A stretch of 64,000 bases of DNA, taken from Clavelina lepadiformis (lineage: Eukaryota > Chordata > Ascidiacea > Aplousobranchia > Clavelinidae). Of this stretch, positions 31,658 to 60,844 are shown one piece after another (the first letter of the stretch is position 1; each line of letters begins with the position of its first letter). The stretch is from assembly GCF_947623445.1 (NCBI RefSeq), contig NC_135248.1:12161820-12225819 (forward strand), given 5' to 3'. The notes under the pieces were generated by a model. That model had not been told where the DNA came from. It did no database searches and saw only the letters and a program-made list of their open reading frames with translations. The translations under genes were made by a program, and so were the position numbers.

Positions 31658-31889
31658 ACATCTGTTTAAATATGCAGTAGTTAGACAAAATAGAATAAAA
31701 GTGCCACACAAAAACACATTTAAAAACAACTCAACAAGATACAACAAAAAGCACCGATATTTAAAGAAATTGGACCAAAAAGTGAAAAGAAATCCAACTA
31801 TGTGAGCAACTCCTCAATAATACAACGTTGAGTCCAAAAACAAACAAAGCGTATACACGGTTAAAATGACGTCATGTTCAGTGACGTAA

Positions 31890-38100: not shown

Positions 38101-38350
38101 GGATCAGACATAGTATTGAGTCACGATACATGTTTCTTATTTTGTAACTGATGCATCGCGAAAAAAAGGCCTTAAATTTACCTAAAACGGACAACGGCGG
38201 CAAGATCAAAGTGAATGTGGGGCAGGTATTCTTAACATGAAAGCACCTTTCATGCACAGAATGAGTTCATCATGTGAAGGCAAAGCCATGCACATGACCG
38301 AACGCTTGTATGGCAATCTGATTATAAGTTTGTTGTTGTGACAAAAAATG
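35185..38350. other. No gene recognised; contains one MITE copy
   Basis: AT-rich spacer between the LDLa/TSP1 gene and the 3' end of CMSS1. A short cttactta run lies near 36553. The minus frame at 36055-36315 (86 codons) has no motif I recognise. The MITE copy at 37571-37852 is listed separately. Confidence 0.45.
37571..37852 (+). mobile_element. MITE copy 1 (TATTTCACC-type ends)
   Basis: Shares TTTATTGGCTGTCA...T, an AT-rich centre with repeated 'aatctaat', and a right end TACGGTGAAATAGTC with the copies at 61801-62056 and 40559-40787. The ends form short inverted repeats around TGACTATTTCACC. No coding capacity. Confidence 0.65.
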
Positions 38351-38356
38351 TTTATT
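38351..38356 (-). terminator. AATAAA overlapping the CMSS1 stop codon
   Basis: The minus-strand reading TCATAAATAAAC places AATAAA directly over the last base of the stop (TAA at 38358-38356), giving almost no 3' UTR. It marks the CMSS1 3' end. Confidence 0.55.
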
Positions 38357-41300
38357 TATGACGTCACTATACCATCGATGGCGTCATCACTCCCATGGTT
38401 GTTGTTTACTTGTAAAACCAAGGCTTGCATACAAATAACATCGGTGTAAGTTATTCCATGAAAAGTAAGGGTATTCAACTTGTAAGTACCTTGTTGAATT
38501 AAAGCTTTAATTCTGGCCGGCGTGCCCACTGCAAAATGTATGACGCTATTTTTAAGCGTCTTCGCTTGTTCTTCTATTTTCATATGACGAGAAAATAATT
38601 TTACAGATCTGAAAAGATTATATAACACAGATATCAAACATTTGCAAAGATACTGAGTATACGCAAGCACTATATAATAAACACTATTCCGAATAGACAT
38701 AATGAAATAGTCACATGGACTCAGAGAAAGTAACATATCTGGAATGGTGTTCTTTTTATAAAGAAAATGGTTTATCACTAAAGCAGTGATAACGCCGGTC
38801 AAACGACGCAGAAAAATCAGTTGATCAGTTGATGTTGTTGTTTCAGTTCTTCGTGTAAAAATAACAACTTACCGGCAACTTTTTCCTTTGAATGGTTTCG
38901 ACGATGAATTCAGATTTGACGCGCGCAAAGCATTCCCGCATATTACTAATATCAAGGGCGACATCTTGTGATTGTGATCGGTACTTATTCTATGCCACTT
39001 GGGGAGCGCTAAACAGAATATAAGTAGGGTAAATAAGCAAAACATTGTATAACCTATTTTAAGTTAAAGGGTTCGTTTTTTCAGTGTAGGGTAGGAAACA
39101 TATATTTTTATACATTACGACAGAATTAATTTGAGAAATTGCAATATCTATTTTGATTTATTAGCCGGTTATGAAATACATACTCACTTTGTTTTAAATA
39201 GGAAATAACGGTGTGGGTCTTTTCAACATTGCATGTTGTGAAATGACAATCTGAAACAAAGACGACCAGTTACACAAACAGCAAATAAATCCTTAAAAAA
39301 AGACAGTAGCATAAGATAGTATTAATATATAAGATAGATAATATGGTTACATAAGATAGATAATTAACTATAGTGATAGTTAATTACAAACAAACAAACA
39401 TATGTAGCAAATAAGTTATTAAATAAAATATAAACAATTACAGTCGGCAAAAATTGAACTTATTATTACGTTTATTATTCGGTGGTAAGTGTTAGCCTGT
39501 ACCAGAATACACGACTAACGTTTCAAATAAACATTTATTTTTCATTTACCGTCCAGCGCCATGTCTTCCACTTCCAGAGTAGAGAGATCAGGAAAATGTT
39601 TATTCAGAGCATTCCTCAATGAGCTGCAGTCGCCGCCAGATGTCGGGATTTCCTCCTCTGTTATTCGCTGTAGCAAAACCAACGGCGACTTAAAAACGAC
39701 ACTTACATCCATACGTTTACTTTAGATGTCAATTATTTGTGATGATGATACGTTGTGGATTAAGGAGAGCATTTTAGAAATGGACATACCAGATAACGCC
39801 GGTGAATAGGCCACAGCGCGCAAAAAACAAATTAACCTGAATACTTTAATAACGTATGATGCATTGCTGATAGGCCATTGCAGCTTAGAAAAGCTTCCAT
39901 ATAAAATGAAAGACACCTTATGGCCGAAATGCGTAATGCAACAAATGCATAATTAATTACGCTAGGTTCAGCTTAAATCACGCCGTATATAGCCTCCACT
40001 AATACGCACGACACGTAAGTTGTCTATTTCGTGTATCACGTGTGCGCTGACGACGAGCAGGAAATGCACGCGTGGCGTGCTATAAAACAAACCATGGTGT
40101 GTGTGTGTGCGTAGCACGCGTGTGCATATGTCAGCCTAAAACATCTGACAATAAATTGTTTACTTAAATTTTGGAAAATCGACAACGATTTTTTTCATAC
40201 CGGTGCATTACTAGCACTATATGGTAGCAAACACTATGCTTGCCGTTATGACGAGGTAAGACGCCAAAGCTATTTTCACGTTTGTGTTCTATTGCCAGCG
40301 GTAGGAACTGGCACGCAGCCAGAACAGTGGGTCGGTTTGAGGAAGTTTGTAATCAGACGGTAAAAGCTTGCTAACTACGCTTTGTGGACAGAAATTTTTG
40401 CAGGACGCGCATAGCGTTTTGAGATGATAAAGTCGAAAGTGTAGGCTAAAATCACTTGAAGTTTGCTATGAAAAGCAGTTTTTGCCTGGTCGCATATATG
40501 AGGTCTGTGCAGTTCTCAATACAGATATGCAAAAAATAATACAAGTATTAGAAAACAGCGACTATTTCACCGTAGGTAGGTCACGCAGCCTGTTGTTGAA
40601 GATAGGAAGCTATAATTTAGAAGAATATGGAGGCAAAAACTTCATTTTAGCCATTTGGGTGTAATTGAAATTAGATTTAGATTAAATGCTAGAATTTAGG
40701 TTAAGTTTAGGTTACTACGTCGTTACAGTTTGGTTAGGTAAAGAGGAAATAGCTTCGAACATCAATTTTTTACAATGAAATAGTGAGCCTCACAAAAATT
40801 GTACAGTATTGTATATGCGGTAGAATAGGTCAAAGTTACATGAACAAGTAAGAGCTTAACTAGATAAACACAATGATAATGATATCTGATATCTACAAAG
40901 GCTTACCTTCCGCTTACGTTTCTTCTTTTTAACTGCTGTCGTTTCATCATCTTCGTTATCATCGCCCGAAACTTCCTTGCGCTTATAAGAATTCCCAGTG
41001 GATTCTGAAATATAAAATTAAGGGTCTATGATAAGTTACCGGTGTCATTGGCTGCTATTCTGATAACGTTAATAAATAGCACATGTGGTTGTAATGAGGA
41101 AGTATATCGTGACACTTGACAATAAGTTCAAAACCTTTGAAGGAAAACAAGACATTGTTTCCAGTATGACGTCAAACAAGGGAAACAACCATTTTAAGTA
41201 CATTTTATTCGGTAGCACAAGCAACTGAACGATCAAGCCGGTCAGGAGGTATCACGGTGCAGCAGGAATAAGATAAAATTTATATGGATCGATGGGTTGT

Positions 41301-44300
41301 TGCTCCAAGCTTAAAACTAGTACAACAACCGCGAAAACGAGATTGCCTTTTCATGAATGACGGTTATTTTTCAGGCGACTAATATAACGTTGGCGGTGTC
41401 CCGTTCTGCAAGACATCAACCAAGCAGCTATATGACCTATCGCCAAAGCGCACGCCAAACGATGGGTATAGCAAAAGCCGATAATGTAAATGCAAGGTAT
41501 AATAGGTCAACGCGAATCTCTTATAATACAGTTGCAGCAGAGGCTTTCCTTGTAAAGTCCATGGCCCTTTCCACTTTCATTATTTCCCAAAAGACCGTTC
41601 GTAAACGACATTGCAGAGTCGCGGTACCTTTATTTAATTGAACGGAGGAAACTAATGAGTGGCGGACACGTAAGGCAAATGCATATAACCGCGTTCAGGA
41701 TAGAAGCTCTGCTTGAAAAATACACGGAGAGTGTTTTAAGAATCAGTTCTTAATAATTACGGTGCAGGGGCAAAAGTGCGTGTCATTGCTATAGAAATTT
41801 TGGAGTAAGAAATGTGTGAAGATACAAGTTTTAAATAATAGCTTAATGACACATTTTAGCTGTAGCAACGGTCAAGCAAAATATGAGATCAAAAAGATCA
41901 TTCTTTTTGAATTTATATCCAATTAAGTGTCCATGAAGTCGGGACAACGCTCTGCCATCTTCAATTACTTTAAAATAACGACCGTAAATATATCGCCATG
42001 GCCAATATCTCATTAACAGCAGCAGTGTGTGCGTCAATTTTATCACCTTCATTAGGTCGACATTACGCGATAAACCAAACTCTATCGACGTTCGCTCGTC
42101 ATTCACGACACAAGCCCAGCAAACAGCGTGTTTTTTTAAAGCAGTGCTTCTCAACCTGCCAGAGAGTAAAAACTGTAGTTGCGATGAAATCTCTCGTATT
42201 TTATACTTGTAACTATTGAATTCGTTGTCGTTTTTTTTTTCAACTAGATAAAACTTTCTATTGCATTTCTGAGAGTTTCTTGCGATTTTATGGTTATTCT
42301 TCAGCAACAGCAGTTGGTCGTGCGGATGAGTAAATTGTAGAACAAAAAGTGCGAGCTGTATGGCTAAAGGTTGAAAACTCATGTTCTAAATCATTAGCTC
42401 ACGATAGCAGAGGAACGGGCTGCGAAATATAGCTGTGGTTTAAAACGTGCGCAATAAATCAACTTGCACCATCTTCCGCTCTCTTTGTGACAGTGCCAAC
42501 GAAACGAAAACCAGAGTGGCATGTACGGAGATAAAAGATAGGAATAACACCAGCCTTGCGTGGTTATCGTAGGATAGCTCAGTGAAGGTCGCATCTTTCA
42601 TGAGAACGGTCGGTTATTACTGTTGAAACAGAACTGTTGTTTGTTTTTGGAACAGTTAATTGCTTTTACTGAGTGCTTGGAGAGAGAGTATCAATTGCCG
42701 TGTTCGCTTGAAACAGAAGGCAAGAAATACGGTATCGGTTCTATCGATATTTCCTTGGTTTTGCGTTACATTTGTACAAACAGGAAATAGGCTTAGGTCT
42801 AAACAATTAAGGTAACCTTCACAGCAGCAAGTGGTATCACGCGTTATATATTCGCGTCAAACAGGCTTAATTATTACTACAACAAGCTAATGTTGTTAAA
42901 ACAACAAAGAAAACACAGACCGCCATCTACATGGTTTACAGTGCAATTGTTCTAATTTGTTCAAGGTGATTTGGTAAACAGAATAACGTCAAAACATAAA
43001 TAAATGGATAAGAGTCGAGTGAATAGAGTAGAAGAAAGAGAATAGAGTGAAAAGGGCGCAATACATAGAACACGCTCAAATTACTCATAAGGCCGGGTTG
43101 GGATCGTGATTCAGGTTATGGCTGTTTTTACAACCTACCATTTGCGAAGTGACAAAACTTTAACTGGACGTCATTTGGGGTAGTTAGCGCTGTTTAACGA
43201 CCAAACCCGCAACAATGAAGTGATACGCTAAACGGGAGTTAGATATGGAAGTTCCCGCCTCGTGGAACTCGGAAATCTTTTTCTGATACAAAATATGTTA
43301 ACTGAAAGGCATTTTTGATACATTTCCCGATGGTAATGAACATGTTTCTACTCAGCTTACCTATTCGGTCACTTATAGGCCTTTACACTTTGCTGTCCGA
43401 TAGTCACGTGGGCAGAATAGCATGGTGAACTTCCTCACAAGAAAATTTCAAAACTTTCCATCAAGACATTATTGATCTGACTTCATTTAATGATACGTCC
43501 GGATGAAATAGGCGCGCATTCAGGCTGGTAGTGGAGTAATTTGAAGCAAAAGAGAACCCGGAAAGCACGGAAGGATGTTTCGTTCGAAGAGGAATAAGGT
43601 AAGTGTGTTGCTGTTTAGCATCTTTCACCATTATATTAGTATTTTGTGTAGTGGTACGATGGTATTTTACCACAGACTGTTGTAGCATGGTAATACGGTA
43701 TCTACGTTGGGTAAAGGTTTGGGTTTGCTCTCTGTGTTTAATTAGGTTATAAAGATGGGTACCGCGCTAAATTACCCCAGATAAAGGAAAATAGTATAAG
43801 TCCGTTTCTGACAGTGCACTGGGAAATAATCTGTAAGCGCAGAAATACTTGGTAACAGATAGGACAATATAAACAAATATAATTAATGATATTTCGCGCT
43901 AAATGCATTAAAAACCGAACCCAAAGTGAAAAAAGATGACACTGAATCTCATATCGACATTGCCCGAGCAACTAAATGTAGTTCGAATGCTAGAAATTGT
44001 TCGATTCAATTATTTATTTCTTCCCCTTAGGGAACACTTCCCTTAGCATCAGTTCTCAGGCGAGTAGGCGAGCCACTGAGCTTTGAATCGTTCACTGGGC
44101 TTAGGAATGACTGTATATCGGTGTGCTTGTATATGCTTACTGTAGAAAAGGGTTAAAAAGGGTTAAACAGGCTAAGTTTGTATGCAGCGAACAACGAGCC
44201 CATTCGCTAGAACCTTGCTTTAGAAATGGGCCTAGCTGAAAGATAAACGCAAATGCTTATATTGCTCAATGTAACATGTCAAGGTCAAAGTGCTTGTTCG

Positions 44301-47300
44301 CAGGTGCAGTAGCTCTGTTGTAGCGTAGCACGGGAAATGATGAAGAATGATCGCAGAAATTAGCGGTTAACGCTTTCATTGATCAACCCGCTTATTTTCC
44401 TGGCGACATAATCAGTCATTGTCCATAAATATTTCACAAGCGGGGTAGTCAGTGGTTTCATTATGTAATCCTGAGGGTCGAAAAACTGGCCACGAACTTA
44501 GTTCAAGGTCAAACGGTTTTTCCGTAACTACATGCAGACATAAGAAGGCATGAAGCAATGTATGAAGAGTAGGGCTGGGAGTACACGTGCTGTACGACAC
44601 GATGCTTTTGTAAGTTTTGGCAACATTGGGTGTGTCTTTTCCCCATGGGTTGGTGATAACTGATAATACGGGATAGATATGTCTACTGTCATGAGCTATT
44701 TTAAGACATTATCATCGCCGAATATAGATTCGTACAAGATCAGGATACGCCAAGGTGTTGAGATAATATCTTTAATATTTATATCAATCTTGTCAATTAT
44801 CAACAAAACATCCGAGAGTATTAAACACGCGTGTTTGAAACGCAAGATAACATTAGACCAAACTCATCCCAGTTCAAAAATTGGATTGAAAAATCGGCTG
44901 TTTCGAAAGTCGCGATATAATACATGAGCTAAGGCAAACGCATCATTTAGAAATCGATAGCTGTGTGCAAGGGAATTTTTCATCAAGTGCACAATACGCA
45001 ATTTCAAGGGCATTATGAGGCCATTGCCAGCAAATAAACAATCATACGGAGGAAACGGCTGACAGAATGCAGAGAAAGCTTAGTACGTGACAGCGAAACA
45101 AACACTTAATATATGATAAAGCCGTCTTGAGTATACTGTACCTATATTCTTACAGATAAACCCTTACATACCAGACGCCAGTTTAGTTCATGAATATACG
45201 TCATGGAATTTCAGCGACATAAACGACAGAAATTACAATGTCAACCTTGCACGGACAGCAGGTAGTTAGTATGCGCACCAATGAAAACAGTTGACAAAAA
45301 GATCACTGAAATTATTCCCAAGTTGTCAAAACTGTAGAATTGGTGTGAGAAACATGTAGCTACAAGCTTATGTCAAATATTAGGCTGACAGCTGTCAGCT
45401 GTTGTAACGCAATAACGGTTTTAGGGACGAAATATAACCGAATACGCATACAGGTACTGTTGACTGCACAAAATAAGATCTTAACCAGGAAAGACAGTCA
45501 GCGTGCAAAAGTTGCTGCGACTTTGGTACCTGGACCGCAAGAAGTATGACAACCAACGATAGTGAAGACATGAACTTCAGTTTTATGGTAGGCGCAGTAA
45601 ATAATATCACTGCTGCAACTATATTGATGTGTTTTACGCGATAGATACCAAGCAAAGCTCGCACAGTATTAAATTGAATCGTAAGTTCGTAGCTAAACAA
45701 AGAATGAGGTTCGTTTTATACAAGTAAAACCCTGATAACGAAGATAGACGTTCATGCACGCCAATGTTTTCTTGATTGGCGACAATTGATAAGTTGTCGT
45801 CAGCTGATAAATCAGAGGGCTGGGTAATTATAACTAACATGCTCTAACAACGACTTTGAAATAATCATATAAATCTAGTACGACAACACAACTCACGTAC
45901 CGCATAACAACGGCAAAATAACATTGGCATGTAGGCCTAAAATGAATTGTGGAGTTCTAAATGGATTTCGTTGTAAAAAGTGTGGTTTAACATACAGGTA
46001 CCTGCTCTTTCTCCACACACAAAAGAACAAGATACTGGAACTGTTCGTAAAAATAAAAAGAAATTAAACGAAAAAGGTAAATTTGACTTTTCTGTTTAAA
46101 TCCCAAACACTGAGTAATGCTCAAAATTGCACCGTTTATAAGAATATTAAGTCGTTATGATCAGCTAAATCCCAGCCTTTGTACGGTTATATAGAACTAT
46201 ATGATCGTATTCTAATTTGAAGTTACTTCTTGCTTCTATTTAGACGACAAGTTGAGGCCGGACAGCCTGAAAGCAATAAATGAAACCCAAGTCAACGGCG
46301 ACAACTCAATGAGCGGGGTGGCAGCACAAAACCACGTTGACGAAATCGCTCAAAATCCTATCGAACCGAATATAAATTTGAGCCGGGATGAATTGCTGAA
46401 GCTACTCAGCGTATTCGAAGGGGAATTACAAGCTCGGGACGAAGTGATCGCGATCCTCAAGAGCGAATGTTCGCATAATACTGAAACAAGGTTATTCGAT
46501 ATATTTTATGATCTCAGAGAGATTGACGATGTTTCAACGATAGTATAACGCCACAGTGTACAACACGTCTCGGTTTTGCTTTATATTTACGGGCTTGTTG
46601 AATACAAACACAATAACAACACGCAACAACGTTCACATACGTAAAGTTGTCTAGGAGTATGGACAAAAGAATAGTAATTTGACACATACAGCTGCAGTTG
46701 GCTCGTTGAATGTCGTCTTTTTAGGCCTATATGCCACCACGAGAAACCGATAGCAATATAACATCGTGGTAGCAATTAGTACAACAACAAGTCCGAAACA
46801 TGTCGCTGTCAGTTTTGTGAATACGGCATGAATATATCTGTACTAGCTGTATTAATTGCAACAGCTAGATATGACAACCAGGCAATAGTGATAAGATGAA
46901 ATTCCAAAAATACGACGACAAACATAAATTTTCCAGGTACACTTTAAATAGCGAACCACTCAAGGCGCTTCAGCGTGATGCGGCGTCACTGGACATGACG
47001 TCACAGGAAGATGTCGGAGAACAGACGAAGGACCAACTAAAGAAAATCATTCAGGTAAAGATTCTGCATGTTCATGAAAACTTCCGTCTGTCAGCCGCGT
47101 AGTTTTTTGCTGATGTCATAACACCATGTGCTTAGATCAATTGCTTCACCGGTTCCCTGATTGGTTAATTTCACAAATGTGACCTTTTACCTTTAACGTT
47201 CGTACAGCATCAGAAAGAATCGTATAAGAAAGTGAAGCAGATGCATATCAGGTCTCAGGATAAATATGAGCGGATGGCGCTGGATCTTGAGGAAGAAAAG

Positions 47301-50300
47301 AGGAAGCATCAGGAGTACATGATGAAGTCTGACGATTTCGTCAATCTTCTTGGTACGTTCGCACGCGATTGATCGCGACTATTTTTGATCCAGGTTTCAC
47401 AGCTGTTATTGTACCAGGATATAACATAGCTGCAGACCTCAGTTTATAACGTATCGTCACAATGCAGTCGACCCTACTATTTCCATTCCAGAGCACGACC
47501 GTGAACGATTGAAAGAACTTGTGGAGCAGGGAAAGACGGTCCACGACCGGAGAGAACGTGAACTGCGCAGAAAACTAAAAGAAAACAAGGTAGGTCTTGT
47601 GCAGTGCGAGGACAGACTGGTGGCAAACAACATGACTCCACGCTCTGGCGCCGAACTTGCAAATATATGATGAAGTGTTGCGTATATCACCGTGGTAATC
47701 TCAAGTACGACGGGGCTGGGGCCGTTAAGTGAACATCGTGAGAGAACGCAAGAACGTTACAGCGAAGTAACCCTTCACATTATGTTCCACAGTCGTCTAC
47801 CATTTGTGTCGTTTGTCTAGGAAGAAGTCTCACGTCTCAAAGCCCTCTCGTTAGAGCTGGTAGACGAGCGACAACAGCAGCTGCAAACTCAATACGAGCA
47901 GAGTCAGCTGGCGCACTCATATAAGAAGCAAGTCGAAGAACTAGAAGCAAAGGTAAATGCCATTAACAACCGTAAGTTGAAAGTCTGTCAAAGCAGATAT
48001 TGTAATATTGCCATGATGGAATGCTGTTCGGCGTGAAATATTGTCATTGTTCCTATTAAAAATCAACTGCGCCATTTGATGTTATGTTTTATTGCATGCA
48101 GCTGGCGGTTGGGCTGCTCTAATATTTCGTCTAAAGCGTTTTATGCCCTTTTGCTCGTTACCGTAGCAACAAATGACACGGGACTTCTCGCTTTATGTAA
48201 TGTACGCGATTTAAACTAAGACGCCGACGTTTAGTTTAAAAATTTTTTATACCATAACAAAAGATTTGGTATCGCGCGTAACTGAGGTAACTTCAACGAC
48301 TTTTAACTTCGTCGGAAATAAAATAATACCAGGACTATGCGATGTGCTAAAAGAGGGTCATACTGCAAAGTGTAAAGGTTAAGCCATAAGGCATGGACGT
48401 AACAATACCCAACGATTACGACTTCAAAATAAAAAAATAACAGCAATGGATATGTGCTGGCAATTTGCCAATATAGTTAGTGGTGACGGTTTTAGCGAAA
48501 AACTTGTTCCAACATACGGTCTTACGCAGGTGAAAGAATACGACCAAATCGCATCCAGCGAGAAGGAGCATGCTTTACAACTAGAAAATGACTTGGAAGA
48601 ACAAAGCAACAAATTTTACAAAGAAAACGAAGACCTTAGAGCGAAACTCTCCTCAGAAGAAGCAAAGTCGGCACAGCTGGAAGAAAAGGTAACAATGCTT
48701 TGAATATATCAAGCTAAGAATGCCAAGAATGCACTAGAAGACTCAGCCGGATGTTGAAACAATTACATGTGGACTGTAACTTATTTCATTACCTCTGCAT
48801 TAACCTCTGCATTAACTAGTTAAAGGCAAATTTTTCGTTATCTTCTAATTTCTTAATTTTCTTTAAAGTTTTCAGTAAATATCCCTTTCCAGGTGGATAG
48901 TGTCAGCAAGCAGATGAAGAAACTGAAGTGCGTTGATAAAAATTTGCGTAAAACTGACGATCAGCTCTGGAGGATTAAGGAGAAGCTGGAACAGGAAGAA
49001 AAGTACGACGACTTGCTGGAAGAGGTTGAACTCCTCCGGAAAACTGTTGCCGATATGCAAGAGGCTGAAAAAATTTACATCCAAGTAGGAACCGAGACCG
49101 GTTTATAGTAAAAAATTACCAATAATTAGAATAAATTATTTACATTTCTGGTTAAAAGATCCTAGTAACGTACCCTATAAACAAAGCAGTGTAAACTATT
49201 AACTCTTTAAACCTCATATTAATAGCATTAATTCCCCATGACAACAACATAAGGAAACTTTTAATAAGTTCTACAATCTACATTCAATAGGCACAAGAGG
49301 AATGTACGGAGTTGCAAACAGCTCTTCAAGAGGAGTTGGTGAAGACCCGTGGTTTAAGAGCGGAAGTTGATAAGCTAAAGAAGAGCACTCGGAATAGGAC
49401 AAATGTGGAGCGATGTGTCGAGGAATCCAATTTCCGTTTCGATGAAATGAAACAAATGTTTGAGGCGGAATGTAAAAAAGCAAACTCCATGAAAGATCAG
49501 ATCGATGTAAGAGAGTTAAACTACGGCCGTTTTTAATTGTTAACTAACACTATTCTATCTTTTCTTATGCACTTGGACACTTTCGTAACATGCAACTTAA
49601 AAAGGTGACCTCAACCTTAAAGCTCAACCCTATACGACATAAACACTACAATGCAAATTCACTTTAACATAGGAGTTCAGTGAACGCCTTAAGAAGATAG
49701 ATGAAACAGAGGAAACCCTTAAACTGAGTGAGCAAAAACTTTACCAACTCAACGTAACGATAAACGACCTTCGCGACGAGAAGAGTGCCCTGGAAACGAA
49801 ATTTCAACTGGAGAAGGACAAATCATCCCAATATAAGGACATGTTAGACGACGAACAGTCTAAGGTGCTGATGCATGGGATGGTGCGACTTGTTTTACTT
49901 TAATGATCATTTATGTTGAACAAGTCGTGTCTTTAGGTTACTGAAGTCACTCAAAAAATGATCGAAGAGAGTAAGAAGGTGTTGAAGTTGAAAGAACAAC
50001 TGGCGACTGAGGAGAGGAAACGTGCCGAGGAAAGCGAAGAACTTCGTCGAAAAGTGGAAGTTGCGGAGGAATCCATGTCACAAATGATTGCTAAGGTTTT
50101 AATTTATAAAAGTCAACGCCGATCTCTTGAAAAAGATACAAAGTTAACCATAAATACCAGCAGTAAAACCAACTTTCGTTCTCCCGATAATCTAATGATA
50201 AATGCATGTACAGTTACATATGGTAACCACTATATTGTCTACAAATAGTTCCATTCCAATAATTTAAAACAAACTAAAGTTTTTCTTCAGGAAAAAGCAA

Positions 50301-53300
50301 GCCAATTAGAGATTTCTCTACACAATCTTCGTAAGCAAGTGGCCATGTTGAAAAAGAGACTTGATGAACTTGAAAATGAAAGTGACCTTAAGGATAATGA
50401 AGCTCGAATGGCAAAAGAAGAAGCTGAAAAGGCAAAAAATAACGTGAGTTGTCAAACAAGTTGCCTTTGTAACAAAGTACCTCATTTCGTCTGTCCTTAC
50501 AACTTGTCTTCATTTGTCTCCTGCAGCTCAAGATTTCAACTGAAAAGCTTAAAAAGCTGGTTGCTATGGGCCTGAATGAGCAATTAGCGATTGCAAAATG
50601 CGACGAGATCAGACAAAAACATTTGGTAAGGACCTCTAAGATTCCCAAGAGAATAGTTTTAGTACATAAAGACTACACCTAAATAGTTTCTTTCTACTGC
50701 CAGACTTTAGAAGAAGCGAACGTCCACCTCCGAAAGCATGTCATGGTGTTAGAAGGGAAGATCCAGCAACACGAAAGAATATCGAACACCAATAACAACA
50801 ATATCTCACTGAGGGTAAAACAAATGATTACAATCAACAGGAAAACATAAGTTCTGCATATCCTGTAATTGCTACCGTCCGTTCTTACATAGGGAGTAGC
50901 AGTGACAAATATTTCTACCCAAACGTCGGCTGCACCAATCGAAGACGTTAAAGAACCGTCATCTCCCCCAGTGCGTAATGTTCTAGTGACTAGAAGTTTT
51001 GCCGAACCAAGCCAGAAACAGCCGGTAATGAAAAAGGTGCCTAATAACATGGTGAACGTAACCAAGAGAGACGCAGTGGAAAGAAATCATTCAAGCTGGG
51101 TTCAAAACAAATCCAAAGTGACCGTGACTTCTCAGAGAAAGGTTACTTCAGGCTTATAGATGTTTCTAGACGAAATTGTATGGTATTGGACTTGGAGCCT
51201 TACATGATAGTAATGTACAGCAAATTAACTTAAGAAGTTTGACTTAAAGGCCACAACGTCAGCCACTCGTACTAGTCTCGACGCTAAGGACGGGGATGAA
51301 AGTGGCAAAGCCTCCGACGCAATGGGGCTTATGCACGGTGCGGGCGAGCAAAGATGTCAGTCGCCGGTTTCTATGACAATATCACACGACCCTTCGACAG
51401 AGACTACTCCCATTTTCCGTATTGTGCGGGATACGAAAACGGGAACACCTCATATTGAAACTAGCGTCACCGACAGTAAGAAGGGGATACAGATACGGAT
51501 GACAAACAAATCAATGACAGGTAAAGTGTCATGTCGGTATGAATGGGTTAGCGTTAGACTTTTACGGCTACGGGCACCTGTTAAGGTTGGTAAATTGGAC
51601 CCGATGAGCAATCCCGAATCGGAAACTCCTTTATAATCGACTGATTGTTACTTAATTGACCGCTTCACCACCGCTATTGACAGCCTTAGGAAAGGTCGCA
51701 GCGGATGTCGACGTTGAAATATTTTAGTGTAGTTGTAGGGGAAATCTCGATTCAAGTTTCCAACTGTTTTACTGGCAAGCCAATACACAACCGAACGTTA
51801 TTTTAAAAGCCTGTCATTGTGCGCAGAGACATCATCAACGCAAACCAGGCCTCCGACTGGAGGCGGGATTTTTAAAGGACCAAGCAAAGGGTCAAAAATC
51901 ATAAACAAGGTCGCTGTCCAGCCAAATTCCTCAAACAGAACAAGAAGTGATAGCAAGACTAGAAAGCCGGCAAGTGTAAATGTAAGTATACGCAAATACA
52001 GTTCAGCATCGCTTGCAGAGTAAAGTGACAATCTTGATAACAATTTAGTGGTGCCTTTTAACGAAAATCTGATTGATATAGGTCAACAGACGTCCGTCCA
52101 TATCTCCGACAAGAATACCGAAACTACGAAGCAGCACACCAACACAGGTAACACCAAGTTCACCAACAACGTCACGTTTGTCAAGAACAGCGACCACGAC
52201 TCGAACCAATCGATAAAAATGTCTAAGAAAATTCAACCCCATTGCCGTGGCAGCTTTCCGTAAAAATTTGACGCCATACACTGGGCAAGTTTAACGAGCA
52301 ACTGGTCGGCTGTCGAGCTCTGTTTTTATATTTTGCGAGCTTGCTTACAACCAACGCAAAGTGGCGTGTGTTGATACCAACACCGCAGCCTGCCTAAATG
52401 ACTGTATTTCTATTGCTTCCTTGTTACCTTCTAACAAAAGCAAATCAATTTATTCTTTCGCGCGTTATTTTATTTTAATAAAAGAAGCTTACCTTTGACA
52501 GCGAGTGCAAATTCGAATCGATGAGTTAATATTCCAATTGACACCACAAACCAATAGTGACTAAGCTTTCCTTAACAACAGATATTTCACTTTGACCATT
52601 CTGGTGTACAAAGCAAATTATGAAAGGACTGAAACTGCAGTTCGACGTGTAAAAGCAAAAGCTCAAATGCTGGATTTCGAACGCATCAAGGAAATTGAAA
52701 ATCGTGTTAAGCACAACAGTAACCTAAGAGATAAGCATTTAAAATGACATTTATAATATCAGCGAACGCAGCAGCTGAAGTATAGGAAATTCCCCACCAT
52801 TGTTGCATCATAAAAATATGCTAAATAGCCTTAAACAGGCTTAACTGCATCGGCGTGTTTTGACGTTAGTGAACTATTTCGAAACTGTTTGGCAAGTATT
52901 TGAGTTACAAGTGCAGGCATTGCTGGAAGTGACATAACAAAAAAGTGTTGTAATGATATACATGATAACTAGCGAACGTTATACTACAGCATATAACTCT
53001 TGAGAGAAATTTTGTCATCTTCACCAACGCTATAAGGCAAGGCAAGAGTTTGTTTTAGAAACGGCGTAACGCAAGAAAATAAAGCGGTTGCGCCAGTACA
53101 AAAGGCGTTACAAAATGCTGGACGGATGCACCAAGCCTACTGATTGCCATCACTTCCGTATGCGGCTGCGCTCCATCGATTGTGACGCGTGATACAAAGA
53201 TAGAATAACAAAATAACCGACGCCATTAACGAAGCTTTCGGCATCGTTGGTTCCAAAGTGTGATACTCTTTAGTGTGCAAAGGCTACTTTACAAATGGCA

Positions 53301-56300
53301 GGAAAACGTTTAGCAACAAAGTGGTAGCACGTTTCGTCTTGTGTACTATACTAAGGGTCATACAGTATTTAGATAAAGAATAGTCAGAAAAAGTTTTATT
53401 TGATATTTATCGCCGAATTTTACAACAAACTCAGGTTATTTTTACGATCCTGTTGTGGAAATGCTTCGCGCGTTAATAGTTAGGGATGTGATGTAAGTTT
53501 TTGTATTTTGGAGCATCCCAACCCGTCGAGCGTCTAATATCAACAGCAGAGTGTACGCAGTAGTATAGGAGGGATATTGCTTGTGGCTGCTTCACGCTGT
53601 GTTTAAAGGGAAGTTTTGGAAGGTTCAGCATCATCACAACTTGCGTATTTCCGGCCTACGCTTTACTTTGTTTTAATGTTACTGACAGGTGTGCCAGGAA
53701 AACCTCTATTATAAATCCAAACGGGTTGAACGAAATTATGCTCAAGGAGAGCTAGACAGGCTATGTAATCGGCTTGCAAAATGGATTACGGTCATGTAAA
53801 ACACAGCAATCGCGCTATTTCTTCGAAGTCTGGCCGGGAATCACCCGTTTTAGAGAATGCACCGGCTGTTCCACCGAGAACTGAAGCATCCAATGTTTAC
53901 ACTGAAGGACCTGTTCCACGTGCCTTCGACAGGCAAATTAAGCATATAGCACCGTGAGTATATATTTCAAGAGAAGACCAATAAATGTTATGGGCAAGTA
54001 AAATGAGATACATTTATAGGTGAAGCATTTTGTTGGCATATATACACAAGGTCTGAGAAAGGTGGAGTTAATTTTTATGGTTAGATCTGTTACCCTGTGC
54101 ATCTTCTTACCTAAAACTAAAAAAAAAACGTAAACAATATTAAGGAAACACATGTTACGTAGGGTACCTTTGCAAAGATACTCGCAGTCTCTAAAGGCTC
54201 CCACCCTCCCACCAAAGAAGTCATCCAGAACTGGCTCGCTCATTAGTAATGTAAGTCGCAAACGTGGGCTGCGTATCCATTTGGTTTAACTTCACAGGTA
54301 ACGTTGCCACGTAGGAACATGAACAACATGTTCTATTAACATCATAAACTAATTCATTTGCAGGACAAACAACATTTGTTGGAAAAATCATTATCGGTGG
54401 ATAAGTGTATGAACCGATATCAACGAACTTCAAGTCCTGATGAAGGTGAGAAACAGAGCAATTTAAACAGAGGCATCTTATTTATTCGAAATTGCACATT
54501 AGCAATCGGGGTTTCATGCTTAATGATAAGCTTGCGTAAAATAATGCTTTATTCATATTATTCAAGGGAGCAATAATATTGACAAGAACTAATTTTATTG
54601 GTATTGGTGTATGAGGAACACAATGTTTGAATGATGTTAATTTGTATTGCATTCAGAACTGTATATATCGGCAAAAGACATAGAAACAATTCCAGAAGAA
54701 TATACCAAATCCCAGATAAGTCAAAGAAAGCCTCGTCCTGCCCCACCAATATCAGGGATCCGACAGAGACTTCCACTCCATATAGACAACACAGCCACAT
54801 CACCCAAACCACCTAGGGCAGAAAACATGTATTCAGCCGGTGCTAAGCGACCAGATTTTGATTTCATGCGACCGCGGTCACCAAACCCTGTGAATGTTGG
54901 ACCGCCTGAGTGGCCGATAAATGATTCTGCTGCAAGATCTTATTCCAGTGTTGAAACGTCTAATTTTATACCAGGTAGATCAAGGATCAAGTTGTATTGT
55001 ATAATTTTTTATGAGATTTTGAAAAACTTTTGCATTCTTTGTTTCATCCTTTAGTTTCAGAAACTGCGATATACGGTGCTGCCCAAGGTAAGAGTGGAAA
55101 TCTTGTAATGGCCTTGGACAGGATAAACATAAAGCTCAACAAACTGTACAAGAAGATAGAACAGTATCACCCTGATTCAGTAGAGCTTATTGAGCTCAAA
55201 AAGCATTTGAGGTTAGACTACAATTGATGATAAGTCTGATACATAAGGTATATATTGTTTAAATAGTTTTTTTTTCATATCTTATGGATAAAACAAGTGC
55301 TTGTAAAACTTTCCTACTGAAAATCTTGAACAGAATGTGATATAAATGTTGAATGCATTCAGGCTTTCAGAACATGAAAATGCAGCTAAAGTGATGGAAC
55401 GTATTCACAAAACTCTTACCCCACCATTAACAACTGAATTAAGTAATGAAAGACGGCAGTCTGAGGAGCTGTACGTTATCAATTTTGTCAACTTTGAAAG
55501 CAAACATGATCTTCGACAACAGATTATCAATATGTTTGCAAAGCCTGGCCCTCGTAAGTATTTAACATGACAGAATATACTTCACAATGCACATTTATGC
55601 TACTAATAGAATTTGGTAAGCTTTGACAGTACTAGCTTAGACATATCGAAATCTATTAAATAGAAATAGTGGTGACCAAGTTTAATGGTCAAATTCAGTA
55701 GTTTATCAGTGTTAGAAATTTGTTATCCTGAGCAATTCTGGACTAACCTGAACCATTATTTGAAATTACAGCCTCCATATCTTACTCAAAAGTGGATGCA
55801 AAAATGGACCAAATAATCACCGAGTTCTGTGCACGAGTGGAAAGTTTACGCAACATTGAAAACCGATATGTTAAAAGCGCCGCCCATGCAAGGGCTATAA
55901 TGAAAGGTCAGAGAATAGTGAATCAAAGCAAAACTGCCATAACAATTATCAAGTTATTAAACTTTCAGTGGTTATCATTTCATTTATCTTTAACTTTATT
56001 CATGCAACTTCGACGTTTGGCAATCTTCATACTTGCGTATGTGCAAAGTATAAGTGAAATCTGCATAATTTGACTTCCTTAATGACAGGAAGTGCTATTA
56101 TTAGTCTTTATTTTTTTATGTATTTACTGTATACTATAAAAAATTAACCATAAATTTACGTAATTTTAATTGATTTTTGTAAGGGTTTGGAGATCATGAA
56201 AGTTTCATAAAGGCTCTCCACGAAAACAAACTATGGATAAAGTGGGGAACACCAAGTGGTTTACCTCCCATACCGCATCTTTACATGCACAAGCAACCGC

Positions 56301-59300
56301 CTTCTTATGAGGTTAGTGCCATATGAAAATCACTGATAACTGGGGAATTTTTTTAAATAATTGGTAAATTTAAATTAAAACTGCATTGTTCTTTAAACTA
56401 AAATTTTGTTCTTTATTGAATTAATGCACATCGTGACTTTGTTGTTAATATACCACTTGCTACATATTCTTATCAAATCAGAAAGCGTTGGTAATACTAT
56501 AAATAAATAACAAGTGTTGTCTCGCAGGTCAGGAAGGCCGTAACAATATCATCGATCGCAGAACGTCTGAGGGCGATGCCAAATATGTTCAATCTTCCAT
56601 TAAGTACAAGTTCCTTATGTCCACCAATCTACAGCCGGCTGAAAACGGACATCTTGGGTGAAATCAAGTGGCAGGTGAAAAGCTAACTACGCTCTATATC
56701 AGGGGTGGGCAAACTGCGGCTCGCGAGCCGCATGCGGCTCTCCGGCCTGTTTTTTGTGGTTCTTCTAGTCGAATCGTAAAATTCCAAAACAATTGTAAGG
56801 GCTACCAAGAGTACCGTTTATGAACGTTTCTGTCTATTTTTTTCTTTATTTAAGCCAGCATTTTGTTTATGACGTAACATTAGACATAGAATCCGACATT
56901 GTTTTCAGGTATAGATTCTATATTCTATGGCAAAGGTTGTCAAGGTGCGCCTCGCCGACATGTTTTTTATGGCTCTTCTAGCTAAAAAGTAATATCCCAA
57001 AATGACTACTAATAATTTAATAACCAAATTGACAATCATTACTGATTTTGCGGCTCGCTGGTGTTTATATTTTTCCGCAAGGGACTCTTTCATTGGACAA
57101 GTTTGCCCACCCCTGCTCTATATGTTCGATAAAGCGGTAACATCAACTAAGCATTTCTGTCCAATTTAATAAAACTCTTGTTATGTAAAATGAAGGTAAG
57201 TAAAAAAGTCAAATAAAGTTTTACTTGTTTTATGTTTACGCATTTTGCTATGAAGGAATGGTTTGGTGAAAGCCAACAGACATACTGGTAGTGGTACAAC
57301 ATTTTTAATTGGTTTGAACAGTGTTTGATTATTATACTAGCATACTGCTAAAATTACATATATACTTTCTGTATATACATATATACACTATTTATTTAAC
57401 TCAAAAAGCAAGTTTTTTGAACAAGGATTTTCCAACATGAGAAAACATCCTGGATAAAACTGGGAGAATTTAGATTTTTTTTAGCTGGCATTGCTTCAGC
57501 AGAACAATATTAAAATAAACTCCTTATTGCTTTACAGGTAACAGAATATAATCACTCTACTGGAAAGTTTGAAAATCATGAATGCCAGTTCCCATCATGG
57601 TTGGACGAAGATCAGAGTGTTATTTCATTGCTTCGTTCATCTAACAGGTTAGTAGTATCCATTAGGTATGTGCCGCGAGGAAGATTATTCGGGTTCGTGC
57701 GAACCCGAATATCATGAAGGTCGACACGAACGAATCTCGAATCTATTCGTATTAGGACCAAACAACAAAATTTCATCTAAAAGCTGTCAAGTCTTGCTTG
57801 CAAAATGATGTAATCGTTAAACAAATCGCTTTGTTTCGAAAAATAGTGTTTAAAAACGATTGAAAAAGCAAAATCGTAAGGAAAACGACCTTCATTGTAA
57901 GTACTATATTGACTCTAGTTTAGCTTTCTCGGTAAACTAGTCATCATTTCTAACGAAAGTCAGTAAATTTATAAGTAATATTGTATTCGGATTCGCCATT
58001 GTTGGTATTCGTGTTCGCCCGAATCTTCCATAAAGGCGATATTCGGCGAATCTATTCGGGTTTGGGTTCGTATAGGCCAGGGGTCGGCAACCTACGGCCC
58101 GCGGGCCGGATCCGGCCCGCCATGCGAAATCGTCCGGCCCGAGACATATTAATTAGTTATCACAAGAATACGGCCCGCCGTGTCCTATTGAGTTTCAAAC
58201 TGTAGTGTTAGCATTTAGCAATTATAGTATTAATGAAAATTCCGGCCCGCCAAAGAGTTGTACGCTCGACATTTGGCCCGTGACTAGCAAAAGGTTGCCG
58301 ACCCCTGATTTAAGGGTAAGACATTCGCGTTTCAGAAAAGCTGTCCCGGCAGTTACGGCCCGCCAGTATATTTTATTTTATCAAATTGGCCCGCGGCTCA
58401 AAAAGGTTGCCGACCCCTGGTATAGGCCCATCCCTAGTATCCATACTCAGAAAAATGTTTTGTTGTAATCTCCTTAAAAAATGCATCATACCAAATGCTC
58501 AGCCTCAACTGGTGATGATTACGTAATATGAGAGTAACAAATTGTACATTGTTCTTTTTCAAACAGAACAGTATTTAAGCAAGGAGACCACCCATACGAA
58601 CTCTATGCCATATACCTGGTTGTCATCAAAGACTTCACCATAGTACAAGATTTATCTGAATATCCCTTTGACAGTGAGTGTGCCTCACCATCCAAGTTTC
58701 AGGTAAAACAATTTAAAGTCAACCACACACCACACAAAATGAGCAAAAAATATGTTTAAATTACAAATCTGTAACGTGAGCCTAACAAAAATAATCCATA
58801 TCAAACTTAACTCTTTTTACCTCCTCATGTTAATAGTACTATATTGGCTCCTCAACCACTGGCGTTTTGTTTCGTTTTACTTGTCTGGAAGAGAGCCATT
58901 GCAAACGAACCAAAAGAATTTTGCAAGAAGCTTCTACCTTGAGTAACTATCGTTGTTACGACGGGTGTGATTTAGTTGAGGTAAAATCCCATAGTTTTTA
59001 AAACAGTCTTACTGTAATTTGATCACACGTCAAATTGAAACCAATGTTGATAAACAAACACAATAGAAGTAGGGACACAGCCCAAGGAAGTTGCAATAAT
59101 TTGTACGATTGCAGGCATGTCTGGCCCTTTCATGGATCCGACGTCAGCCAAGAGCGATTTTTGTTCTCAACTCGTTTCTCTCTGCACGTCAATCGAGCTT
59201 ATCACTTGAAAAGAAGAAACCTTTCAACGAAAAGATGCTCAGTATGGAAAAACATTTAATTGAAGGGAAAAAAATTGGTCCATTGTTCAATATGAGATTC

Positions 59301-60228
59301 GGTATGAATGGAACAACTACGGTCAAGGACCCATATGATTAAAGTCATCTCAGTTGAAATATTGCATTTAAGTTATGCATATGTAAACAGCATATATTCT
59401 AAAGTTTTACACCAGAAACTGGTGCTTTTAAATACTAGTGTGTAAAACGATTTTGTTTTCATAACTATTTCCCAGTAAATATGGATAAATTTGTGTTAGT
59501 AATGCTTGATGAAGGCTGCCTTTCAAACTGTATATTCTTGAATAATAAACAATCATACTGTTGCAGTTATCTCTTAACCAAGCGATATAAAATTTAAATG
59601 GAACGGAGGTACGGAAAAGAGTCTACAAATAGCAATGTAGTATCGAAGATGCTGCTTAATAGCATGGGGGTTTCGTTAACTAGCCCACCTAGACCAACAG
59701 CACAACAATAAACTCAACTATTTATTCAACACAGATGAAAATATCGTATAAATATACTCTGACAGCTATGTACGTAATCAGTACAATCACAGTGTCTACA
59801 AACTGACATGTATTGGACATATTATCTACTTTCCATCTTCAAAGTACCGGTAAAGCTACTTGGCAATCACAGTTTATATTTCGTAACACTACGAATGTCA
59901 CAACAATTTCGTATACTAAATGAGTTTTGACTTATCTACGTTATCGATATGACAAAAAATGAGAAAATTCTGTGCCAAGGCAAATGTGATTTACCTGACA
60001 AATGAACTCAATTGTATGTTACTAGTATATAAAGTACTTATACCTTCAAAGACATATTACAATACACAGATAATGCAAGTACTAATCACTAGTGATTCAA
60101 CATCTAGTACATACAGAAAATAAATATATTATACATGTATGATTGACAGATAATAAATGGTCACCTTGCTCCTCTGCTTCAGAATTATCTTCTTCCTCCC
60201 ACCAATTTTCACCAAGGTCATCTGCCAT
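38356..60228 (-). CDS. CMSS1: CMSS1 (Cms1 ribosomal small-subunit homologue), with a 19-kb intron
   Basis: Six exons in matching phase (60228-60165, 41004-40907, 39667-39550, 39250-39188, 39008-38873, 38608-38356) give 244 codons (243 aa; human is about 279). The start [14 protein letters not shown] is almost the vertebrate N-terminus. An acidic stretch and a KKKKRKRKR basic run follow, then [27 protein letters not shown] and VKLFSRHMK...[19 protein letters not shown], the conserved core of the DEAD-box-like Cms1 fold. The family works in nucleolar 40S subunit maturation. The last ~30 residues differ from vertebrates (the DxxxRRMMDIPE end is missing) and the stop overlaps AATAAA, so the C-terminus may be shortened, or a splice at 38478 may lead to an exon I could not find. 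Intron 1 (41005-60164) contains two plus-strand genes; the exon 1 to exon 2 join rests on phase and homology. Confidence 0.82.
40559..40787 (-). mobile_element. MITE copy 2 (TATTTCACC-type ends), inverted
   Basis: GACTATTTCACCGTAGGTAGG then TTGTTGAAGATAGG is the reverse complement of the right part of the copy at 37571-37852; the far end is AATGAAATAGTGA. It lies in CMSS1 intron 1 close to exon 2. Confidence 0.65.
41005..43570. other. Intronic DNA of CMSS1 with no recognised gene
   Basis: Long open frames exist (41357-41641 plus; 41843-42382 minus, 179 codons), but they have no domain motif, sit in AT-rich DNA and lack splice support. CAGTGCTTCTCAACC at 42142 resembles a hAT terminus, but no partner end with a target duplication was found. 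Confidence 0.4.
43575..43598 (+). CDS. Candidate first coding exon of the FILIP1-like gene
   Basis: ATG followed by FRSKRNK and a strong donor AAG|GTAAGT. Vertebrate FILIP1/FILIP1L begin MRSR, so the start is suggestive. Its end phase is 0, while the next sure exon (46244) needs one base from upstream, so another small exon between them would be required. Tentative. Confidence 0.25.
46244..52216 (+). CDS. FILIP1L: FILIP1/FILIP1L orthologue (filamin-A-interacting coiled-coil protein), 5' end incomplete
   Basis: Seventeen exons: 46244-46490, 46937-47054, 47208-47352, 47492-47589, 47821-47952, 48530-48688, 48893-49084, 49291-49506, 49673-49864, 49937-50095, 50291-50443, 50527-50625, 50704-50814, 50893-51141, 51235-51520, 51827-51981, 52082-52216. 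They join to about 947 residues; the ATG exon lies upstream. Landmarks shared with vertebrate FILIP1/FILIP1[80 protein letters not shown], then STQTSA...SFAEPSQK and the C-terminal SPTRIPKL. Exons 2-13 are almost pure coiled coil (mostly phase 0). It is probably cytoskeletal, acting on filamin and actin organisation. Since the vertebrate paralogues split later, this should be the single pro-orthologue of both. The gene lies wholly inside CMSS1 intron 1 on the opposite strand. Confidence 0.85.
52477..52482 (+). terminator. AATAAA poly(A) signal of the FILIP1-like gene
   Basis: AATAAA 261 nt beyond the TAA at 52214-52216, before any exon of the next plus-strand gene. Confidence 0.5.
52483..53780. 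other. Spacer between the two nested plus-strand genes; no gene recognised
   Basis: AT-rich with no supported exon. The frame 52526-52714 on the minus strand has no motif. The promoter of the 53.8-kb gene should lie here, but no element is evident by eye. Confidence 0.4.
53781..59342 (+). CDS. Unrecognised 630-aa protein, nested in CMSS1 intron 1
   Basis: Twelve exons (53781-53953, 54163-54250, 54364-54445, 54657-54974, 55055-55211, 55363-55553, 55772-55906, 56184-56311, 56528-56674, 57538-57647, 58567-58702, 59115-59342) join in phase to 631 codons. The N-terminal third is Ser/Pro-rich and probably disordered ([29 protein letters not shown]). A middle part is helical ([30 protein letters not shown]). 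The last third looks globular ([49 protein letters not shown]). There is no signal peptide or membrane helix, so it is likely cytosolic. I do not recognise the family and do not guess a function. The exon 2 acceptor could alternatively be 16 nt downstream. AATAAA lies at 59544-59549. Introns 9 and 10 carry hAT-type insertions. Confidence 0.75.
56700..57115 (+). mobile_element. Complete 416-bp hAT-type non-autonomous element
   Basis: Terminal inverted repeats CAGGGGTGGGCAAACT and AGTTTGCCCACCCCTG (one inner mismatch), flanked by the identical 8-bp duplication CTCTATAT (56692-56699 and 57116-57123). It sits in intron 9 of the 630-aa gene. No transposase. A truncated relative is at 1779-1957. 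The TIR sequence and 8-bp duplications are typical of hAT elements. Confidence 0.9.
57663..58436 (+). mobile_element. Second hAT-type element, itself invaded by a third
   Basis: Ends TAGGTATGTGCC and GGCCCATCCCTA (inverted, 2 mismatches), flanked by the 8-bp duplication GTATCCAT (57655-57662 and 58437-58444). Subtracting the inner insertion leaves about 424 bp of its own sequence, with repeated attcgggttcg words. It lies in intron 10 of the 630-aa gene. Confidence 0.85.
58078..58419 (+). mobile_element. 342-bp hAT-type element inserted in the 57663-58436 element
   Basis: Ends CAGGGGTCGGCAACCT and AAGGTTGCCGACCCCTG, flanked by the perfect 8-bp duplication GTATAGGC (58070-58077 and 58420-58427). 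An internal copy of the right end (GGTTGCCGACCCCTG, near 58293-58307) shows an internal duplication or tandem fusion. The interior is rich in CGGCCCGCC-type words. Confidence 0.9.
59544..59549 (+). terminator. AATAAA poly(A) signal of the 630-aa gene
   Basis: AATAAA about 200 nt beyond the TAA at 59340-59342. Confidence 0.5.
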
Positions 60229-60622: not shown

Positions 60623-60844
60623 TCAATTCTCTTTGCCCGAGGTTTGTGTTGAACTTTCATCAACCTGTGAATGGTCCGTATAGGTGTACAGACGCGTATG
60701 AAGTTCACCTTTTTCAGGCGGTATAGCAGGTATGGACATGTCAGGTCTGTACCACATATGCACAGCCTGTGACCCGGCCGCCATGGCCAAAAATGATGAA
60801 AGAATTGACTTCAAATAAAAGTTCCAGGATACTCCGTACGGCAT
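60623..60844 (-). CDS. UQCC6: UQCC6 / brawnin, complex III assembly micropeptide
   Basis: An intronless 73-codon frame starting MPYGVSWNFYLKS, matching the vertebrate MPxGVxxxxYLK start. LSSFLAMAAGSQAVHMWYRP gives the single membrane helix and the conserved (H)xxYRPD turn, then IPAIPPEKGELHT, the family's IPxIPPxxGEL signature. Human UQCC6 (C12orf73) is 71 aa; it sits in the mitochondrial inner membrane and is needed for assembly of respiratory complex III. The first in-frame ATG is ten codons upstream (60874), but homology places the start at 60844. It lies 117 bp downstream of UQCC5 and 394 bp upstream of the CMSS1 ATG on the same strand. Confidence 0.9.
   Translation of the reverse strand: MPYGVSWNFYLKSILSSFLAMAAGSQAVHMWYRPDMSIPAIPPEKGELHTRLYTYTDHSQVDESSTQTSGKEN

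What the first reader, a model, noticed from the sequence alone, without database searches (positions are those of the whole stretch)
38356..60228. FILIP1-like gene nested antisense inside CMSS1: an apparent chordate-wide nested pair
CMSS1 exon 1 (60.2 kb) and exons 2-6 (41.0-38.4 kb) enclose the complete plus-strand FILIP1 orthologue. The phases of exons 1 and 2 match (1/1). From memory, human CMSS1 and FILIP1L have the same nested, opposite-strand relation on 3q12. If so, the arrangement predates the split of this lineage from vertebrates, and the shared architecture may be held in place by FILIP1L regulatory DNA within CMSS1 introns.
Basis: partly seen in the sequence, partly recalled or inferred. 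Interest (0 to 1): 0.9.

Follow-up and report, generated by a model that had tools for sequence, protein, structure and literature searches.

The report
Sea squirt CMSS1 hosts FILIP1 gene
In a sea squirt, the FILIP1-family cytoskeleton gene sits backwards inside the first intron of the ribosome-assembly gene CMSS1, much as in mammals, so the nesting is probably inherited from an ancestor shared by tunicates and vertebrates, though special regulation is not needed to explain it.

Summary
The nesting is real at the level of gene models. CMSS1 (minus strand) starts at 60,228, and the FILIP1-family coding region (46,309-52,216, plus strand, 17 exons) lies wholly in its 19.2-kb first intron. The host was drawn too short: CMSS1 has 8 exons, not 6, and ends at 30,946; adding the two missed exons raises the Pfam CMS1 score from 79 to 113 bits. 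CMSS1 holds at least two more genes, one on its own strand. A mouse paper puts Filip1l and Cmss1 on opposite strands with shared intronic sequence, so a nest inherited from the tunicate-vertebrate ancestor is likely. Amphioxus, sharks and other tunicates could not be checked: 'chordate-wide' is untested. Nothing here favours FILIP1 regulatory DNA as the glue; nested genes simply resist separation, while TMEM30 and TBC1D23, listed in the same mouse interval, lie on other chromosomes here. The exon 1-exon 2 junction has no transcript support and a weak donor, and its N-terminal likeness to human CMSS1 is recalled.

The parts
60165..60228 (-). CMSS1 exon 1 ([21 protein letters not shown] + 1 nt), donor GTGACC
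   Evidence: motif once in the genome held; human N-terminus recalled
40907..41004 (-). CMSS1 exon 2
   Evidence: AG/GT borders, phase 1 start
39550..39667 (-). CMSS1 exon 3
   Evidence: within Pfam CMS1 match
39188..39250 (-). CMSS1 exon 4
   Evidence: within Pfam CMS1 match
38873..39008 (-). CMSS1 exon 5
   Evidence: within Pfam CMS1 match
38490..38608 (-).
31214..31302 (-).
   Evidence: exons 7 and 8 together raise CMS1 score 79 to 113 bits
30946..31029 (-).
41005..60164 (-). CMSS1 intron 1, 19,160 bases, hosting two plus-strand genes
46309..52216 (+). FILIP1-family coding region, 17 exons modelled by hand, 926 aa, CortBP2 domain and long helical middle; nested antisense in CMSS1 intron 1
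   Evidence: the other CortBP2 match of the genome is on C5
53781..58702 (+). Second guest of intron 1: gene with at least 11 exons, 550 aa read, no Pfam match over a cut-off and no PDB match up to E 1; 3' end not settled
31303..38489 (-). CMSS1 intron 6, 7,187 bases
31890..35184 (-). Third guest, same strand as host: membrane-protein gene with LDLa domains (signal-like start 35,184, stop 31,890, AATAAA 31,652-31,657); exons not modelled, one gene inferred
60623..60844 (-). UQCC6/BRAWNIN (C12orf73) directly upstream of CMSS1 exon 1, same strand
   Evidence: Pfam PF14990 2.6e-18; coordinates
60962..61225 (-). UQCC5/SMIM4, 117 bases upstream of UQCC6, same strand
   Evidence: Pfam PF15114 7.2e-20; coordinates

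Best explanation
This is an inherited nested gene pair. An ancestor of tunicates and vertebrates already had a FILIP1-type gene, transcribed in the opposite direction, inside an early intron of CMSS1 (a ribosome-assembly factor gene). The CMSS1 pre-mRNA starts at or before 60.2 kb, runs about 29 kb through FILIP1, the second plus-strand gene and the LDLa gene, and splices eight short exons together; FILIP1 uses its own start inside the host intron. The pair stays together mainly because nesting resists break-up: a rearrangement that parted them would have to cut CMSS1, or lift FILIP1 out cleanly, whereas ordinary neighbours are free to scatter. Shown: gene models, orientation, containment of the coding region, corrected host structure. 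Supported by papers: antisense overlap in mouse and shared introns in human. Inferred: splicing of exon 1 to exon 2, common descent of the nesting, and the passive reason for its retention.
For: 8-exon CMSS1 model open from ATG to stop across seven in-frame junctions, Pfam CMS1 113 bits over profile 10-246 of 250. One CMS1 match at E <= 0.001 in the genome, exon 6 of this gene (3 candidates scored; the same search rang below the cut-off in 4 of 14 control genomes). FILIP1-type gene inside intron 1. Three CortBP2 matches in the genome (5 candidates scored): two in this gene, one on C5 in a gene that I read, by recall of the family, as CTTNBP2-type. Mouse: a region that 'overlaps with two genes on opposite strands, Filip1l and Cmss1' and covers intronic regions of both (PMC8138604 passages); listed positions 57.302 and 57.353 Mb (PMC7298343 passages). 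Human: indel within introns of both (PMC5463068 passages). Tmem30c and Tbc1d23 are listed in the same mouse chr 16 interval (close adjacency recalled); here TMEM30-family matches are on C4 and C2 and TBC1D23 on C3. Tunicates keep few conserved neighbour pairs (54 of 595 in Ciona, 8 in Oikopleura, PMC4122922 section 7). Uniform placement would put a named gene in this intron, opposite strand, with chance about 4.6e-5.
Against: No transcript joins 60,165 to 41,004. The exon 1 donor is weak and exon 1 adds only 3.2 bits. FILIP1 rather than CTTNBP2 class rests on architecture, not on a tree with vertebrate sequences. Exon borders were chosen by hand with the reading frame in view. Full containment in human and the host intron number are recalled, not read. 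Nested pairs can be lost: 19 of 63 ancient vertebrate pairs cannot be found in frog or chicken (PMC3933685 section 17), so nesting alone is not an absolute lock. The chance estimate ignores ancestral adjacency. Only two neighbour families gave an answer; a third (COX7a) gave none.
Confidence: 0.62

Rival explanations
1. Regulatory lock: FILIP1 enhancers lie in CMSS1 introns, making CMSS1 a bystander in a FILIP1 regulatory block.
For: A mouse paper reads an intronic Filip1l/Cmss1 region with H3K27ac, H3K27me3 and CTCF as a likely enhancer, potentially of Filip1l (PMC8138604 passages). PMC4122922 section 7 reports that most ancient gene pairs of Irimia et al. share regulation.
Against: That region is in Filip1l's own intron as well. 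No conserved non-coding DNA could be tested between tunicate and vertebrate. CMSS1 introns here also hold two other genes, so large introns are not special to FILIP1 control.
Confidence: 0.15
2. Independent nesting: CMSS1 and FILIP1 were ancestral neighbours or unlinked, and became nested separately in tunicates and vertebrates.
For: CMSS1 in this genome holds other genes, one on the same strand, so it may be a permissive host. [quoted passage not shown]
Against: Same partner, opposite strands in mouse too. Chance placement about 4.6e-5.
Confidence: 0.1
3. Not nested here: 60,165-60,228 belongs to another transcript and CMSS1 starts from an exon between 41 and 46 kb, beside FILIP1.
For: Weak donor GTGACC. 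The Pfam gain from exon 1 is 3.2 bits. No transcript.
Against: Of 44 ATGs with a phase-1 donor in 41,005-60,300 (11 of 64 donor triplets allowed) the one at 60,228 shares 9 of 11 residues with the recalled human N-terminus and the other 43 share at most 3. Motif once in the genome held. Five phase-1 GTs lie in the exon 1 frame: three of them would make a TAA at the junction with exon 2, and the one at base 16 would drop the conserved-looking WW.
Confidence: 0.1
4. Active antisense coupling: transcription of CMSS1 through FILIP1 (or the reverse) regulates one by the other, and selection keeps that.
For: The arrangement forces opposing transcription across about 12 kb, 46.3-58.7 kb.
Against: No expression data seen here. 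Would be equally expected for any nested pair.
Confidence: 0.05

Closest known systems
Mammalian CMSS1 / FILIP1L overlap (mouse chr 16, human 3q12)
   Same: Opposite strands and shared intronic sequence in mouse, shared introns in human, same two gene families.
   Different: Here the host is 29 kb rather than hundreds of kb (recalled), holds at least two more genes, and TMEM30 and TBC1D23 matches are on other chromosomes.
LRRTM genes nested antisense in alpha-catenin introns
   Same: Old opposite-strand nesting kept in most jawed vertebrates (PMC3933685 passages).
   Different: That nesting arose in vertebrates; no LRRTM found in tunicates or lancelets. CMSS1/FILIP1 appears to predate the tunicate split.
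Sloth1/Sloth2 (SMIM4/C12orf73) bicistron
   Same: UQCC5 and UQCC6 in tandem, reported for Drosophila, choanoflagellate, sea squirt and lamprey (PMC9681215 passages).
   Different: Only a neighbour of the finding; here CMSS1 exon 1 follows 394 bases downstream on the same strand.

Membership tests
CMSS1 (Cms1 family) | CMS1 domain over full length | tested here: met
   PF14617 E 2e-32, profile 10-246 of 250
CMSS1 (Cms1 family) | Conserved MADDLG..WW start encoded by exon 1 | tested here: inconclusive
   Motif present, once in the genome held, but the comparison sequence is recalled; paper search for it found 0 papers
FILIP1 / FILIP1L | N-terminal CortBP2 domain | tested here: met
   PF09727 E 3.1e-46, profile 1-187 of 187
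FILIP1 / FILIP1L | Closer to FILIP1/FILIP1L than to CTTNBP2/CTTNBP2NL in a tree | not tested
   No vertebrate sequences available here; assigned by long helical middle and tail, and by the separate C5 gene
Nested gene pair | Guest coding region wholly inside a host intron flanked by coding exons | tested here: met
   46,309-52,216 inside 41,005-60,164, given the exon 1-2 junction
Nested gene pair | Host splice junction across the guest shown by transcript | not testable with these tools
   No RNA data here
Ancient conserved nested pair (chordate-wide) | Same nesting in vertebrates | tested here: inconclusive
   Passages of papers show opposite-strand overlap with shared introns in mouse and shared introns in human; full containment recalled
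Ancient conserved nested pair (chordate-wide) | Same nesting in amphioxus and other tunicates | not testable with these tools
   No animal genome other than the window's own could be searched

The most novel reading that the evidence does not exclude
CMSS1 is the third cistron of the ancient UQCC5-UQCC6 operon in this tunicate, and the operon's pre-mRNA runs through a 19-kb intron that has held FILIP1 in antisense since before tunicates and vertebrates parted; an operon and a nested pair would then be locked together in one transcription unit.
Probability: 0.25. Interest if true: 0.5.

Novelty: new member of a known kind. Interest (0 to 1): 0.34.

Why it matters
If confirmed, this nested pair is older than vertebrates and has survived in a lineage that lost most ancient neighbour pairs (54 of 595 kept in Ciona). 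Such a pair is a clean case for asking whether gene order is kept by regulation or simply because one gene physically traps another.

Tried and rejected
Tunicate diagnosis by the GH6 domain and by mitochondrial COX1 failed: no match for either. The GH6 search rang in 0 of 14 control genomes, so it shows nothing; COX1 rang in 8 of 14 controls, so the genome held here probably lacks the mitochondrial contig. Species was then judged by two contig lengths: C5 24,617,235 and C9 15,725,681 against 24.62 and 15.73 Mb for Clavelina lepadiformis. Against it: the held genome has 95 contigs and 209.06 Mb, the paper 102 scaffolds and 210.1 Mb; Ascidia mentula has 95 scaffolds but 197.0 Mb and other chromosome lengths (22.35 and 15.45 Mb for 5 and 9). 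COX7a as a synteny marker gave no match (rang in 0 of 14 controls). PDB search of CMSS1 gave 27 rows up to E 1, 26 of them DEAD-box-type RNA helicases (best E 4.3e-4) and one DNA polymerase (E 0.78); of the second guest nothing up to E 1, of FILIP1's first 254 residues nothing up to E 0.01. A scan of prokaryote contigs for stray animal CMSS1 found 588 pattern matches, none a relative. Paper searches: CMSS1 with FILIP1L 18 papers, 4 of them opened; C3orf26 with FILIP1L 4, 1 opened; FILIP1L with 'nested gene' 0; the N-terminal peptide 0; a general nested-gene search gave 205, 20 listed, none opened. The passages seen of PMC9114367 (pig) and PMC4144469 (human) name both genes but say nothing on strand or nesting. 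Irimia et al. 2012 is not held and is cited through PMC4122922.

Full report
What was checked. The window is C9:12,161,820-12,225,819 of a 209-Mb, 95-contig genome. The two contig lengths that I saw, C5 24,617,235 and C9 15,725,681, round to chromosomes 5 (24.62 Mb) and 9 (15.73 Mb) of Clavelina lepadiformis kaClaLepa1.1, a tunicate (PMC10884593, passages). The published assembly is 210.1 Mb in 102 scaffolds, slightly more than is held here. Direct tests for a tunicate (GH6 domain, mitochondrial COX1) gave no match and no information.

The host gene. The stated exon 6 runs past a donor: its last residues are not CMS1-like, and the missing C-terminus lies about 7 kb further on. The corrected gene has eight exons, 60,228 to 30,946, giving 256 aa with seven in-frame junctions. 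Pfam CMS1 scores 113 bits over profile 10-246 of 250, 79 bits over 10-201 for the six-exon reading, and 109.8 bits without exon 1. The last comparison shows that Pfam says little about exon 1; its first 40 residues alone match no Pfam family. Exon 1 is supported by an N-terminus that matches the human one, as I recall it, at 9 of 11 residues. In a scan of 41,005-60,300, minus strand, 44 ATGs had a phase-1 donor (11 of 64 following triplets allowed, 54 candidate exons); the other 43 shared at most 3. The motif occurs once in the genome held. Against it stand a weak donor (GTGACC), no transcript, and a failed attempt to find the human peptide in print (0 papers).

The guests. The FILIP1-type gene was modelled by hand with 17 coding exons at 46,309-52,216, 926 aa; some of its donors are weak. 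Its first 478 residues carry a full CortBP2 domain (3.1e-46). Three CortBP2 matches at E <= 0.001 were found in the genome, out of 5 candidates scored: two in this gene, one on C5, whose open frames suggest a shorter helical part and a different tail and which I read, by recall of the family, as CTTNBP2-type. FILIP1 class is thus by architecture and elimination, not by a tree. Behind it in the same intron is another plus-strand gene, 53,781-58,702 or beyond, with no Pfam match over a cut-off and no PDB match up to E 1. In CMSS1 intron 6 lies a same-strand gene with LDLa domains (one piece over Pfam's cut-off, one just under it), start 35,184, stop 31,890, AATAAA at 31,652-31,657; its exons were not modelled. 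So the host holds at least three genes, two antisense and one in its own direction.

Comparison with mammals. In mouse a methylated region at chr16:57,391,482-57,391,657 'overlaps with two genes on opposite strands, Filip1l and Cmss1' and covers intronic regions of both (PMC8138604, passages). Another paper lists Cmss1 at 57.302 and Filip1l at 57.353 Mb, and names Tomm70a, Nit2, Tbc1d23, Tmem30c, Col8a1 and Dcbld2 in the same QTL interval (PMC7298343, passages); that these are close neighbours is recalled. In human an indel lies in introns of both genes (PMC5463068, passages). That FILIP1L is wholly inside CMSS1 in human, and in which intron, is recalled. TMEM30-family and TBC1D23 matches in the present genome are on C4, C2 and C3, not C9. 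So of the mouse-interval genes tested (FILIP1 family, TMEM30, TBC1D23), only FILIP1 is still with CMSS1. COX7a, recalled to lie near vertebrate FILIP1, gave no information.

Interpretation. A named gene placed at random falls in this intron in opposite orientation with chance about 4.6e-5 (uniform placement assumed, ancestral adjacency ignored). Tunicates have lost most ancient neighbour pairs: of 595, Ciona keeps 54 and Oikopleura 8 (PMC4122922 section 7). Shared descent of the nest before the tunicate-vertebrate split is therefore the best reading. Why it lasted is a separate question. A nested gene is hard to part from its host without cutting the host, and that passive reason suffices. It is not absolute: 63 of 91 mammalian opposite-strand coding nests reach zebrafish or coelacanth, but 19 of those 63 cannot be found in frog or chicken (PMC3933685 section 17), while many vertebrate overlaps in general are species- or lineage-specific (PMC2151771 section 5). 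The regulatory-lock idea has one mouse enhancer argument behind it and no cross-phylum evidence seen here. The presence of other guests in CMSS1 makes a FILIP1-specific reason less necessary.

A neighbour worth noting. Directly upstream of CMSS1 exon 1, on the same strand, are UQCC6 (60,623-60,844) and UQCC5 (60,962-61,225), two complex III assembly factors (PMC8719881 passages). The gaps are 117 and 394 bases; ATTAAA lies at 60,944-60,949 between the first two, and no AATAAA or ATTAAA lies between UQCC6 and CMSS1. Their bicistron is already reported in Drosophila, choanoflagellate, sea squirt and lamprey (PMC9681215 passages). About a fifth of Ciona genes are in operons, defined there by gaps under 100 bases with genes in fact abutting (PMC2760879 passages). 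Gaps here are measured between coding ends, so they neither meet nor fail that test. CMSS1 as a third cistron is possible, not shown.

Verdict. The nesting is real on the gene-model level, the host was drawn too short, the claim of chordate-wide conservation is a fair but untested extension, and the regulatory explanation is one option without direct support. It is a new, probably very old member of the known class of nested gene pairs. That the pair is described as nested in print was looked for only in the library searched (0 papers).

Noticed in passing
60,623-61,225 (-): UQCC5/SMIM4 and UQCC6/BRAWNIN in tandem 117 bases apart; an arrangement already reported as a bicistron in sea squirt, fly, lamprey and choanoflagellate. 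CMSS1 exon 1 follows 394 bases on, a possible third cistron.
   Followed up: partly
31,890-35,184 (-): A membrane-protein gene with LDLa domains lies between CMSS1 exons 6 and 7 on the same strand, with its own AATAAA, so CMSS1 transcripts must read past it.
   Followed up: partly
53,781-58,702 (+): Multi-exon gene with no Pfam match over a cut-off and no PDB match up to E 1, nested in CMSS1 intron 1 behind FILIP1; identity unknown.
   Followed up: partly
23,197-29,457 (+): Open frames with LCCL domains (3 of 3 tested pieces match over the cut-off) beyond the CMSS1 end, opposite strand; probably one gene.
   Followed up: partly
11,432-13,357 (-): Long open frame with thrombospondin type 1 repeats, a trefoil match under the cut-off and a tandem run of NPGSIPNF-like repeats.
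   Followed up: no
about 56,700-57,115 and 58,079-58,419: Two stretches whose ends look like inverted repeats beginning CAGGGGTGGGCAAACT and CAGGGGTCGGCAACC, seen by eye; they resemble short hAT-type elements (recalled), in introns of the second guest gene.
   Followed up: no
L010:4979-6718 (-): Bromodomain plus DUF3512 protein (BRD7/BRD9-like by recall) upstream of UQCC5 on the same strand.
   Followed up: no
G000:C5:5,050,689 (L007/L008): Second CortBP2 gene of the genome, CTTNBP2-like in layout by recall.
   Followed up: partly
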